From Owenia fusiformis (Eukaryota > Annelida > Polychaeta > Sabellida > Oweniidae): a stretch of DNA of 64,000 nt. Positions 1,260 through 44,800 of this stretch are shown piece after piece. The notes under the pieces are model-generated. The model did no database searches and was not told the DNA's origin. It saw only the letters and a list, made by a program, of their open reading frames with translations. Within the stretch, counting starts at the first letter, position 1. Each line of letters begins with the position of its first letter. The DNA lies in the NCBI GenBank assembly GCA_903813345.2, contig CAIIXF020000011.1, forward strand, positions 33,908,166-33,972,165, read 5' to 3'. The position numbers and the translations under genes are program-made.

Positions 1260-4200
1260 CTATGATTTGGTCTCCTCGCTGTTATAGTTTGACAGAGTCA
1301 ATCTTGGCACAATGTTCATAGATTGGAGTTCTTGGAATAGCAGTTTACATGCATATGGCATTTTCAGAGAAGACACGTCTGTACTGGATTTACAGTAATG
1401 GCACCTAAAACAAGAAATCAAGGCATTAACACGACAATATGCCACATTCTGGGGACTACATGTACATTAGATTCAAGCCCATAGCCAGGTTTGAGCACCC
1501 CCAGTCTCTTGCGAAAAATCTTTCAAAATCATGCAGTTTCTCACCACTGAGCACTTTTCAAGTGATTTAGGGCCAAAGTTATAAAATGTGAACCTGGAAC
1601 ACCCTGGAATTTTTTAAAAATTGAGCCCCCTTGGCAAAAGCTGGCTATGGGCCCGTGATTGCAAGTCACCAGTCACACTATCCTACTACCTCTTGGTGGT
1701 GATATTAAAATTGAATATTGTAGACATCTCAGTTTCATAATTACTAGGAATATATTATGTTATGATATGTAGTTATTTTCAAAAAATGAAAAAGACAATG
1801 CTGAACTTTACATGCATTTAAGGTTACATGGATCAAATGAGTAGTCAACTTTATTGATAGCTTGTCTTCTTTGGCAGACTTAAAGATAGCTACAATATAC
1901 TTTACTGTGGCATTACATGACTTCAGCCTCGATAAACACAGCCCTGAAATGAAAATACAACTAAGTTCTGCTTCACTAAGTTGAATGTTTACTTACCAGC
2001 CTGAATATGCTAGGAGACCACATTTATTGCACACATCTACTTCAAAAGCATCACTCGAGATCATGAGACGTTCCAACAGCAGCATACTGAAATCAAACGT
2101 TGAATTTAAACAGAGAATTGTACCACAGAACTTTGCTCTCACGATTGTTTCGAAAGAGATTGTTAATCAGAAAATATCCTTGTGCCAAGTTATGTCTATA
2201 ATTACTGAGACAAACACAATAGTATACAAACCTTGCACCATATCCAATAAGACAATCCCGTTCCATCTCTCCGAGTCTAAGGCCTCCATCCCTAGATCTT
2301 CCCTCGGTTGGTTGTCGTGTCAACACAGCACGTGGCCCCTTGGCCCTGGCGTGCATCTTGTCAAGTACCATATGCTTCAGTTTCTGGTAGTAGATTGGCC
2401 CAAAGAATATATAAGCACTCAGTGGCTCCCTGAACAAAATATTAATGATAAAATTGTACTGTAAAACACACATGGTGGCCATTTTGAATTACGACCCAAT
2501 ATTGAAATTCCTTTTCAATCAGAAGTTCTATACCTATAATGCATCAACCTATATGATTTTAACAGAACTAAACAGATTTATTACACAGAATGACAAATTG
2601 ATTTTCTGCGAGCAATAGAATATCAAATATCTGTCAAATAGAATTCATCAAAATTATCCTCATCAGTCGAAAGTCAGTTTTTAAGCCTGGAATTAAGGAG
2701 TAAAATAACTGACAGATGTTATCTTTAACAAAAATTCAATACATAGTATAAACTATATGCGCGACATGCTCCCTTACCCTGTAATACCAGATGTGACATA
2801 GTACTTACCCTGTAATACCAGATGTGACATAGTCTTACCCTGTAATACCAGATGTGACATACTCCCTTACCCTGTAATACCAGATGTGACATAGTCCTTC
2901 CTTACCCTGTAATATCAGATGTGACATTATCCCTTACCATGTAATACCAGATGTGACATAGTCCTACCCTGTAATACCAGATGTGACATAGTGCTTAACC
3001 TGTAATACCAGATGTGACATAGTGCTTACCCTGTAATGCCAGATGTGACATAGTCCTTACCCTGTAATACCAGACGTGACATAGTCCTAACCCTGTAATA
3101 CCAGATGTGACATAGTTCTTACCCTGTAATACCAGATGTGACATAGTGCTTAACCTGTAATACCAGATGTGACATAGTGCTTAACCTGTAATACCAGATG
3201 TGACATAGTGCTTACCCTGTAATGCCAGATGTGACATAGTCCTTACCCTGTAATACCAGACGTGACATAGTCCTAACCCTGTAATACCAGATGTGACATA
3301 GTTCTTACCCTGTAATACCAGATGTGACATAGTGCTTACCCTGTAATACCAGATGTGACATAGTCCTTACCCTGTAATACCAGATGTGACATAGTGCTTA
3401 CCCTGTAATGCCAGATGTGACATAGTCCTTGCCAAGGTAGTTGAAGCCATTGTTGATGAGAATCTCTGAATACTCCTCCACTTTATTACCTCCAAAAGCT
3501 AAAAAAGAATCAAAAGGGTAATTCTAGATTCATCAAGGTAATTCTAAATTTATCAAGGTAATTCAAGCTTTAAAAAAGTAATTCTAGATTTATCAAGGTA
3601 ATTCAATATTTAACAAGGTAATTCAAGATTTAACAGGGTATTATAAGAATTAAAAAGGTAATTCATGAATTAACTTTCAAAAATTCATAAGGTAATTCAA
3701 GGTTTAAGAAAGTTATTCAAAAATTAACAAGGTAATAGCAAGGCAAAATGAATTCAATCAAAGATCTCATTTCCATCTCCAAATAACTGAGAAGTAATTA
3801 TAAATCTGTTCCATAGTGTTGACTCCTAACCCCATTCCCCTTTTCCCAAAATTATATTGCCTTTAAAAATTTAATTTCTCATTGTCTATGTTGGCCCCTT
3901 ATGAAAGTTGGTTGGTTACCTGTGCCATAGTGTTGCTTCCCTGCCAAGACACCAGCCTTCCCTCCCATGAGCTCCAGTAGTTTCCCAACAGTCATACGTG
4001 ATGGGTAACCATGGGGATTCATGATCTAAAATATACATGTAAGTCTGTAGGTATATAATTCATCATTGTTTAATATTAAATCTTTAATGCAACATATACG
4101 TTTTGATTGTTGTGTTTCAGTTAACAAGACTACAAGTCAGTACATAAATAAATGTTAGTGAAAACATTTAGCACAAAACTACATTGTTTCTGAATAAGTA

Positions 4201-41800: not shown

Positions 41801-44800
41801 GTGTTTAATTTTGTGTTATTTTTTGCAGAAATTCCTCTTGAAGTTGCCGGGGGGCATATTTGGGGAGGACACAGAACAAGACCTTCTCTCAGTCTTAGAT
41901 CTCTCACATACTTTACAGAAATATGACGCCATTCACACGTAAGTTTCATACTCTACAGAAATATGACGCCATTCACACGTAAGTTTCATACTCTACAGAA
42001 ATATGATGCCATTCACACGTAAGTTTCATACTCTACAGAAATATGACGCCATTCACACGTAAGTTTCATACTCTACAGAAATATGACGCCATTCACACGT
42101 AAGTTTCATACTCTACAGAAATATGACGCCATTCACACGTAAGTTTCATACTCTACAGAAATATGATGCCATTCACACGTAAGTTTCATACTCTACAGAA
42201 ATATGATGCCATTCACACGTAAGTTTCATACTCTACAGAAATATGATGCCATTCACACGTAAGTTTCATCGCCACAGAAATATGATGCCATTCACACATA
42301 AGTTTCATACTCGACAGAAATGTGATATTCACACATAGGTTTTAATTCTACTGAAATATGACATCATTCACACATTAGTTTCATCAGGAAAAAAATGTTT
42401 GTACTTAAATATAAAGTATCATACCTAGAAAATTGACACCATTTGCACATATGTTTCATTAAACTAAATTACATTATATTTTAGGATCATTGAGGGACTA
42501 CCAACCACTGTCCAATATTTCCTCTCCCTGCTATTTGGCACATGGTTCCGTGTGATTAACCACTCAGAATACAACTGCATGACGGCAGAGGCATTAGCGA
42601 AGAGCGTGGCAGGAAGCGTCTTCCACACATGTGCTGATGACCCTCAAAAGGTTGACCGTGCAGTGCAAGTTCTCCAAATCCTTATAGATAATTTCGGAGT
42701 TGCGAATATGTTTGGAAAGAAGAATATCCAATATTTTGCCGATATGACTCAAACCGGTATAAGGGTACAGGAGAAGTTCAGATATGAGTATCGTTACCCA
42801 TCAGATGCTTCAGTTCCTCGTAAGTATTTTGATTGGCTGTTTGAATCTACGCACTGCATTCATGTTGCATTTTGATTTTTGCATGAGGTTAATGTTTTAG
42901 TATAGTTTGCATGTATACAATGTATTTGCATGTATACAATGATGTTGACTTATTCAAATCTTTTGTAAAAAATTGTGCATTTTGATATCACAGTACAGCG
43001 TTTATTTTGTTAAATGGTTCACTTGAAAAAGCCAATCCCTGGTTTCACAGGCTATGTTTAAATATGCAATGTACTATAGAGTGATTAGGCCTTTACAAAT
43101 TAATTGGCTGTTTAGCAGACTTACTTGACAAATTGAACTGAGGCCAGTTTTTATTATTATTATTAAGAAGATGAGTCAAAAATTGCTAGAAATGCAAGAA
43201 ATTTTTTTGACAAGATTGGGAGGTTTTAGAAAATCAGATGAGAACTGCTAAACAGAAAATTAGGCCCATAGATATGATTAATTTCAATAAGGTATTCATT
43301 ATTTCTATACACAGTCTGTAAATATGTATGTGTAAATAGTAAAACCTGTTAAGTGGAACACCTCTTGACAGAACTTTTCCATATGTGGACACTTGTCAAA
43401 GTCCCATGAGCCATTGACTTCATGTTAATTGAACCTATAATAGTGGAACATGTCCCGCTAAGAAGAACTTTCAAATCAAATGGCAATCCCCTTATACAGG
43501 TTTTACTGTATTTTTATTCATAAATATTTTCATTATGATTTTTATTCAGGGTTTTGGATTTTATTTTTGCAGTATTGTTTTAACATTTTCTTTCTTTTAC
43601 ATACTAAGTGAAGGGATGTGTTGCAAGGGGATGGTGGATCGGAGCATTGTTTTAAGGGGATGATGGGATCATTGTGTTGTTTTAAGGGGATGGTGGGATT
43701 GGAGCGTTGTTTTAAGGGGATATGTTTCGAAAGGAAAATGGGGGATCTTACATTGAGAGGTAGAATGGGGATGAGTATTTTAAGAATGATAATTGAAAAC
43801 TATAATTGTTGAATATTGCAAGGAAGACAAAAAATGATTTAATAACTTTACATACTGGTTAGGTCCAAAGTCATTAGAACTGTTTGCATCAGTTCTCGAG
43901 AAAGAGGCAAATAAGTGGGGATTCCGTCCAAAGTTAACTCCTGGTAAGGTAATATTGAGAGCTTTATAGGCAGCTTATGTACTTTATGTGCACCCCTGTG
44001 TGTATGTATACTGCTATATAATCTCAAAAAATGTGAAGTAAGATTCATGGATTCATTTGTTTTGTGATATCACCATGCAAATATACGTTAGACAATCTTA
44101 AAAACAATGTGAATTCATGAAAAAAAATTGTTTTTGTAATATCCCCATGGAAATATCATATAGACAATTGAATTAAACAGATTCACTACACATGTATTTA
44201 CAACCCTATCGGCTATAGTAAATGCTTGTAAAGCTGCAATCAACATGGGTACTATCCAATATCATGCTGTGAGTGTGCTTGTTGCTTCCTAAGTGAAGGA
44301 CCACAAATATATCCTAGTGAGATCCTACAAAATCACAAGTTAACCACAATGAGCACAGTAGGGCAAGGTTTGGATAGTATTCATGAATCAGCCATGCATG
44401 CAGCAGCTACCTTGCTTTACTAATTAAAACCTTGTATGATTTCTTGAAAACCATTTTCTGAAGAACTGCCTTGTATATGATTTGTCTGATTTTGCTTTTT
44501 GTTTTTCCCATGTTGCATCTTATGAATTTTGTATGTTTATCCAGTCGCTCATTATAGTGCTCCATAATAATAAGCTTAGATGATTAACTTAGGCCTTATA
44601 CACATTGGCTTGCAAAATTGTCCCAGAATACCACTTGCTTTGCTCCATCTTGTATATACAAGATTTGACTTGCATTTTGCATACTAAAATGCTTTATTGT
44701 CAAAACAACATAATCTGAAATGACATCTAATTTACTGTGTCAGCTTCAAGTGAAAAAGCTTGTCGTAGTGTATTCCTAATGATTTCTTTTTGGGGAATAA

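What the first reader, a model, noticed from the sequence alone, without database searches (positions are those of the whole stretch)
2763..42400. Tandem arrays recur precisely at exon-intron boundaries in two unrelated genes
Four arrays (31, 133, 40 and 58 bp) each span a splice junction, two at donors and two at acceptors; a fifth (62 bp, three units) starts about 10 nt inside the exon 9 donor. Random minisatellites would rarely land on junctions. Possible explanations: splice-site copies are tolerated because the outermost or original site wins; or nicking, R-loops or template switching at junctions seeds duplication. I know of no described system of this kind in this form.
Basis: inference. 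Interest (0 to 1): 0.9.

Follow-up and report, generated by a model that had tools for sequence, protein, structure and literature searches.

The report
Minisatellites straddling exon-intron boundaries ("mirages")
In this probably worm-like or mollusc-like animal genome, short pieces of DNA that cross the edge between an exon and an intron have been copied head to tail many times; this is a phenomenon described from lancelets, seen here in another branch of animals, with signs that the real exon edge keeps exchanging sequence with its copies.

Summary
The observation mostly holds. The 31-, 133- and 40-bp arrays cross junctions of homology-supported exons (POLR3B exons 26 and 17; a RhoGAP exon). 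The 58-bp array crosses the acceptor of a likely exon. The 62-bp array is intronic, 14 nt past the exon 9 donor.

The kind is known: "mirages", reported from amphioxus. This genome is probably no lancelet: its muscle myosin scores best against mollusc entries (species recalled).

I sampled 57 other stretches (268 kb). With the window, 19 of 43 long arrays (TRF score 200 or more, unit 20 bp or more) span a junction, against 8.8 expected from random founder units (p=1.6e-4). The excess is about two-fold, absent among small arrays (2 of 48), partly carried by two genes, and weak (p=0.03) if a third of junctions were missed. Intron-only arrays within 50 nt of a junction are also about two-fold in excess (by-eye recount).

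New evidence: variants private to one intronic copy are synonymous at the neutral rate (5 of 24, arrays of six or more copies); shared variants are mostly synonymous (21 of 31; neutral 25%; p=9e-7). Sequence that spreads has probably passed through the functional exon. I propose tolerated tandem duplication with exon-filtered concerted evolution.

The parts
1282..18541 (-). POLR3B (RNA polymerase III second-largest subunit) coding region, 29 coding exons
   Evidence: PDB chain 7a6h_B, 1798 bits with a stitched 965-aa query; exons and GT/AG sites placed
2772..3430 (-). 31-bp array, 21.1 copies, spanning the exon 26 donor; the copy joined to the exon (3402-3430) keeps the conserved frame; 20 further copies in the intron, 17 keep GT
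7995..8122 (-). POLR3B exon 17, the functional copy at the 3'-most end of the 133-bp array
8025..9072 (-). 133-bp array, 7.9 copies, spanning the exon 17 acceptor; unit = 98 nt exon + 35 nt intron; 7 upstream copies keep AG; identity to the exon copy falls from 99 to 88% with distance
13756..13948 (-). 62-bp array, 3.1 copies, intronic, 14 nt past the exon 9 donor; not junction-spanning
13596..13636 (-). decayed copy of the exon 9 end (41 nt), about 326 nt downstream of the donor; alignment score 16
   Evidence: at score 14 or more, 1 of 624 reversed-probe and 0 of 624 other-intron controls
34257..34367 (+). 58-bp array, 1.9 copies, spanning a likely acceptor (exon from 34361, 7 nt exonic)
   Evidence: exon not homology-supported
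41829..41938 (+). RhoGAP-domain exon ending in the 40-bp array
41907..42384 (+). 40-bp array, 12.1 copies, spanning the donor; unit = 32 nt exon + 8 nt intron; the farthest of nine measured copies is the most diverged (98 to 85%)
42420..42456 (+). further decayed copy beyond the end that TRF called

Best explanation
These are 'mirage' minisatellites. SHOWN: a segment crossing a splice junction (31-260 bp, containing the GT or AG) is repeated head to tail into the intron, and the copy joined to the conserved exon is the outermost one. INFERRED: a local tandem duplication that crosses a junction is tolerated, because the spliceosome still pairs the copy that is continuous with the rest of the exon, so duplicates become intron. 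INFERRED FROM DATA: the array then evolves in concert, by unequal exchange, conversion or exon-side growth, and the functional exon end is one member of the exchanging pool. Variants that spread must therefore work as exon sequence. This filter and re-seeding from a constrained exon copy may keep such arrays long and uniform. It cannot be the whole reason for the excess, since intron-only arrays beside junctions seem over-represented too.
For: Twenty junction-spanning arrays measured in the window plus the sample; a 21st (L033 2669, score 130) was recognised on recheck and is not in the copy-level counts. Exon-end probes find a copy in the adjacent intron at 18 of 624 flanks (score 22 or more), against 0 of 624 reversed probes and 0 of 624 introns of other loci. 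Unit lengths are multiples of three in only 4 of 20. Shared variants in the exon-derived part are synonymous 21 of 31 (expected 25%, p=9e-7); wrong frames give 6 of 28 and 1 of 28; private variants in arrays of six or more copies give 5 of 24; Fisher shared against private p=9e-4. Junction arrays are long in 19 of 21, other arrays in 24 of 70 (p=8e-6), and the long ones are more uniform (95.5% against 89.7% matches). Decayed cases: POLR3B exon 9, L056, probably L015.
Against: No RNA or read data: use of the outermost site rests on protein conservation. The excess disappears if true junction density is twice what I annotated and is p=0.03 at 1.5 times. A null that shifts whole arrays gave no excess in A (3 of 13, 5.6 expected) or B (9 of 18, 8.2 expected), window 5 of 8, p=0.05, with an earlier, looser junction call; I think that null is wrong because array length results from expansion. 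The restriction of private variants to arrays of six or more copies was made after seeing that single-copy variants over all 16 arrays are 21 of 52 synonymous, 26 of 53 at third positions, p=0.012; in arrays of two or three copies a single variant cannot be told from a shared one. The exon part of copies varies less than the intron part when pooled (1.9% against 4.4%), but array by array it is 5 against 5. The shared-variant signal is 31 variants from 9 arrays. Intron-only arrays near junctions are also in excess, which the exon filter does not explain.
Confidence: 0.57

Rival explanations
1. Plain chance and tolerance: tandem duplications fall anywhere, gene-dense DNA with short introns has many junctions, and nothing keeps arrays at junctions.
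For: Annotated junctions lie every 413-421 bp in samples A and B. At all scores the excess is 21 of 91 against 12.0 (p=0.009 when counted as 20). Small arrays show none (2 of 48 against 3.2). Without the window and the two richest genes p=0.07.
Against: Long arrays 19 of 43 against 8.8, p=1.6e-4; 15 of 35 against 8.0 without the discovery window, p=0.004. Chance alone does not predict the synonymous bias of shared variants.
Confidence: 0.3
2. Junctions and the 50 nt beside them are mutational hotspots: R-loops, nicking, template switching or local composition at splice sites seed the duplications.
For: The excess of junction arrays; intron-only arrays within 50 nt of a junction 13 of 46 against about 7, p=0.015, by-eye distances. 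The intronic part of the unit is 30-38 nt in 8 of 20 arrays, seen after the fact.
Against: Small, presumably young, arrays do not span junctions in excess (2 of 48 against 3.2). The automatic count of near-junction arrays was 8 of 38 against 5.8, and the by-eye recount was not blind. Donors and acceptors are both affected (8 and 12 of the 20 measured).
Confidence: 0.25
3. The copies are selected as spare or alternative splice sites.
For: 116 of 120 intronic copies keep the splice dinucleotide, 107.6 expected from overall identity. Shared variants are mostly synonymous.
Against: Private variants look neutral in large arrays (5 of 24 synonymous). Using a neighbouring site shifts the frame in 11 of the 13 arrays with three or more extra copies.
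Confidence: 0.08
4. Assembly artefact (false expansion of a short duplication).
For: Not testable without reads.
Against: In most of the arrays copies differ by point variants, some decay away from the exon, and the same form recurs in 20 measured arrays in 13 sequences (the window and 12 loci).
Confidence: 0.03

Closest known systems
'Mirages' of amphioxus (Adh3, globin BflGb6/BflGb9, troponin C, PGBD5)
   Same: Minisatellite-like tandem duplications spanning exon-intron boundaries, at 5' and 3' boundaries, units of 10-160 bp, many copies keeping AG/GT; reported not to interfere with regular splicing (abstract and passages of PMC3087553; one passage of PMC3902484).
   Different: Probably a different animal group: the muscle myosin heavy chain scores 686 bits against mollusc entries, 630 against Myosin-7, about 601 and 595 against arthropod entries (species of the mollusc and arthropod entries recalled, the output names none). 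More copies here (up to 21.1) than the 6 and 3 given for BflGb6. There the cluster boundary units were described as excluded from homogenization; here shared variants point to exchange with the exon copy.
[quoted passage not shown]
   Same: A minisatellite carrying repeated donor sites. Known to me from recall and from a 1995 title in the reference list of PMC2572611.
   Different: A single human gene; the paper was not read.
Intron creation by tandem duplication / internal tandem repeats at boundaries
   Same: Repeats at exon-intron boundaries may give rise to new introns (PMC2812944, passages; PMC4974935, title and start of abstract in the listing).
   Different: Here the intron already exists and the array enlarges it; intron gain was not tested.

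Membership tests
mirage minisatellites | tandem repeat unit contains an exon-intron boundary | tested here: met
   20 arrays with exon and intron part measured (L034 re-measured); one (34257) on a likely exon only
mirage minisatellites | both donor and acceptor boundaries affected | tested here: met
   8 donors, 12 acceptors of 20; L033 adds a ninth donor
mirage minisatellites | copies keep GT/AG signals | tested here: met
   116 of 120 extra copies
mirage minisatellites | do not disturb regular splicing | not testable with these tools
   no RNA data; the conserved protein frame is kept by the outermost copy
mirage minisatellites | length instability between haplotypes or in somatic tissue | not testable with these tools
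   one assembly, no reads
mirage minisatellites | cephalochordate host | tested here: not met
   one protein, species of entries recalled; I take this as where the kind was first seen, not as part of its definition

The most novel reading that the evidence does not exclude
In this genome roughly 3% of splice junctions end in a minisatellite of which the exon edge is a working member: sequence variants spread through the array only after passing through the exon, so the last or first codons of many conserved exons evolve in concert with non-coding copies, and this exon-filtered turnover maintains the arrays and enlarges introns.
Probability: 0.42. Interest if true: 0.72.

Novelty: new member of a known kind. 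Interest (0 to 1): 0.55.

Why it matters
In the papers that I could read, boundary-spanning minisatellites are an amphioxus peculiarity. Finding them in what is probably a distant lineage, in core genes, suggests a general process that lengthens introns and could create them. The shared-against-private variant test gives a sequence-only way to ask whether an exon takes part in the turnover of a satellite, and can be run on any assembled genome. Such arrays can also mislead exon-finding: one kinesin exon gave 18 hits in a genome search.

Tried and rejected
Automatic junction calls from Pfam hits alone missed exons and over-called neighbours (L050; window 13756); replaced by tblastn-extended exons and inspection of arrays. 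A whole-array null gave no excess. I therefore lowered my explanation from 0.62 to 0.57 and the novel case from 0.45 to 0.42. Base composition: junction arrays 38.7% GC, other arrays 36.0%, exons 40.3%, introns 33.0%; not modelled. Position of the junction inside the unit: KS p=0.067 with one unit mis-measured (L034), not pursued. Polarity of decay: clear in window 8025 and L044 1272, at the far end only in window 41907, absent in several others. A donor-only minisatellite was rejected, because acceptors are affected as often.

Rows kept out of the long-array count: L051 172 (score 194) and L033 2669 (score 130), which span junctions; decayed cases (window exon 9, L015, L056 5111); L044 1-258 and L057 2984, which abut a splice site without exon bases (by eye). 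Long arrays of sample A and of the window were classed with the question known; the rule for B was written first. If window 34257 is not counted the total is 18 of 43; no p was computed for that. The frame tests used 16 of the 20 measured arrays (left out: window 34257, L006, L025, L051) and 12 of 20. Some shared non-synonymous variants (window 2772, 8025) lie at the unit edge where exon and intron phases blur; they were kept in.

Paper searches that showed me no report of mirages outside cephalochordates: (listings only, apart from the passages named). The library is open-access only, so this does not prove absence. The Adh paper (PMC117041) is not held.
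Full report
OBSERVATION. The minus-strand gene at 18541-1282 is POLR3B: a stitched translation of 965 aa matches the PDB chain 7a6h_B (RPC2) at 1798 bits, and 29 coding exons with GT/AG sites were placed (the automatic join went out of frame at exons 22-23, where the boundary as typed was 1-2 nt off; from the letters, exon 22 ends ..CAGAAGGG and exon 23 starts GGTGTGTGG). The plus-strand gene has a RhoGAP domain (PF00620, E=1.2e-21). The 31-bp array crosses the exon 26 donor, the 133-bp array the exon 17 acceptor, the 40-bp array the donor of the RhoGAP exon at 41829-41938. 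The 58-bp array crosses the acceptor of a likely first coding exon that I could not support by homology. The fifth array lies 14 nt inside the intron. A decayed copy of the exon 9 end sits at 13636-13596.

WHERE IT IS. Its muscle myosin heavy chain scores 686 bits against entries that I recall as scallop, 630 against Myosin-7, and about 601 and 595 against entries that I recall as arthropod. So a lophotrochozoan is likely and a lancelet unlikely. From recall, size and contig number fit the annelid Owenia fusiformis; no call tests this.

SAMPLE. I took 20 stretches with myosin exons (A, 117,100 bp), 35 with kinesin exons (B, 132,900 bp) and two around POLR1B- and POLR2B-like exons (C, 18,000 bp), chosen from Pfam exon hits, in the main where two or more hits lay close together. 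They hold 85 of the 92 listed myosin hits and 125 of the 144 listed kinesin hits, by my count, of which 108 were used and 17 are further copies of one array. The 159-bp kinesin array of contig C2 was visible in the hit list before fetching; its gene qualified by its other exons. The rule for B was written down before its arrays were examined. Exons were extended by tblastn to 135 (A), 147 (B) and 20 (C); the window has 41.

ENRICHMENT. Among arrays with unit 20 bp or more and score 200 or more, those spanning a junction are 4 of 8 (window), 7 of 13 (A), 8 of 18 (B) and 0 of 4 (C): 19 of 43. Placing one unit at random in the array-collapsed sequence gives 8.8 expected, p=1.6e-4. Alone, A has p=0.006 and B p=0.053. 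Without the window: 15 of 35 against 8.0, p=0.004. Without L014 and L044: 13 of 35 against 6.3, p=0.004. Without all three: 9 of 27 against 5.5, p=0.07. If junction probability is 1.2, 1.3 or 1.5 times higher, p becomes 0.002, 0.005 and 0.03; doubled, there is no excess (39 arrays). Scores 50-199: 1 of 48 against 3.2 as run, 2 of 48 with L033. All scores: 20 of 91 against 12.0, p=0.009, or 21 of 91 with L033. A null that moves whole arrays shows no excess in A or B. I conclude: a real but modest excess in long arrays, in a sample and not genome-wide.

BESIDE THE JUNCTION. I first counted intron-only arrays within 50 nt of a junction as 8 of 38 against 5.8. On rechecking, exon ends had over-run into introns and six arrays had been dropped. 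Reading the true boundaries by eye gives 13 of 46 against about 7, p=0.012-0.017. The recount was not blind. So the neighbourhood of junctions, not only the junction itself, may favour arrays.

A second test does not depend on TRF. Probes of up to 42 nt from exon ends, aligned to up to 1.2 kb of adjacent intron, score 22 or more at 18 of 624 flanks, against 0 of 624 for reversed probes and 0 of 624 for introns of other loci. One of the 18 (L006 donor) owes part of its score to an exon end set too far into the intron; the two hits scoring 18-22 (L015, L006 acceptor) are artefacts of that kind. So about 3% of junctions carry a recognisable copy. This shows that the copies are local; it does not by itself show excess over intron-only duplication.

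ANATOMY. In the 20 measured arrays the unit is 31-260 bp and its exonic part 4-139 nt; eight donors and twelve acceptors; 4 of 20 unit lengths are multiples of three (L034 re-measured). In L014 one myosin intron carries a donor array at one end and an acceptor array at the other. In L014 3019 two variants repeat every third unit, so blocks of three units were probably amplified. 116 of 120 extra copies keep the splice dinucleotide. Taking the neighbouring site would shift the frame in 11 of 13 arrays with three or more extra copies.

MECHANISM. In 16 arrays with known frame, differences between the true exon end and its intronic copies were classed. Over all 16 arrays, variants seen in a single copy already lean to third positions (26 of 53, p=0.012; 21 of 52 synonymous), but in arrays of two or three copies a single variant cannot be told from a change of the exon or a shared one. 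In arrays of six or more copies, private variants are synonymous in 5 of 24, the neutral expectation being 25%; this restriction was chosen. Variants shared by two or more but not all copies are synonymous in 21 of 31 (p=9e-7); with the frame shifted by one or two the counts are 6 of 28 and 1 of 28. Variants in all copies: 7 of 14. Shared against private: Fisher p=9e-4 (12 arrays). The simplest reading is that a variant spreads only if it has been, or arose, in the functional exon. In window 8025 the shared variants form blocks by distance from the exon (growth from the exon side); in L037 they are scattered (exchange). The exon-derived part of copies varies less than the intron part when pooled (1.9% against 4.4%), but array by array it is five against five. 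I regard exon-filtered turnover as likely, not proven.

KNOWN. Amphioxus 'mirages' are the same kind (PMC3087553, abstract and passages; PMC3902484, one passage). The former authors report that their RT-PCR suggests no interference with splicing, and propose a role in intron gain. The new points here are the host lineage, a rate estimate and the variant test.

Noticed in passing
L001 9510-9716 and L020 (C9:37986000-37994400, minus): A tandem cluster of about 13 similar myosin heavy chain exons covering profile positions about 27-81 (12 Pfam hits, one more of this size by tblastn), more than I recall from other animals.
   Followed up: partly
L037 346-3189 (C2:23266345-23269188): A kinesin exon with its acceptor repeated 17.9 times at 159 bp; visible in the genome search as a ladder of 18 hits.
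   Followed up: yes
L014 2290-4089: One myosin intron made, by my arithmetic, to about nine tenths of a donor array at one end and an acceptor array at the other.
   Followed up: partly
L056 5111-5402: Two-copy duplication (70 of 83 aligned exon bases identical), each copy after an AG, in the POLR1B-like gene; no TRF row.
   Followed up: partly
window about 355-400, 7254-7300, 9915-9960, 34190-34250; L028 6898; L050 36-216: A dispersed repeat recognised by eye in both orientations; probably a mobile element.
   Followed up: no
window 12400-13340: Dispersed repeat with recurring CCATTTT-like motifs, seemingly related to arrays in L009, L044 and L057.
   Followed up: no
L010 8097-8251: A 33-bp array that by eye reads as an 11-aa coding repeat on the minus strand, in an unidentified gene: the in-frame kind of array that an exon tolerates.
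   Followed up: no
20 measured junction-spanning arrays: The intronic part of the unit is 30-38 nt in 8 of 20 arrays; noticed afterwards, no explanation.
   Followed up: no
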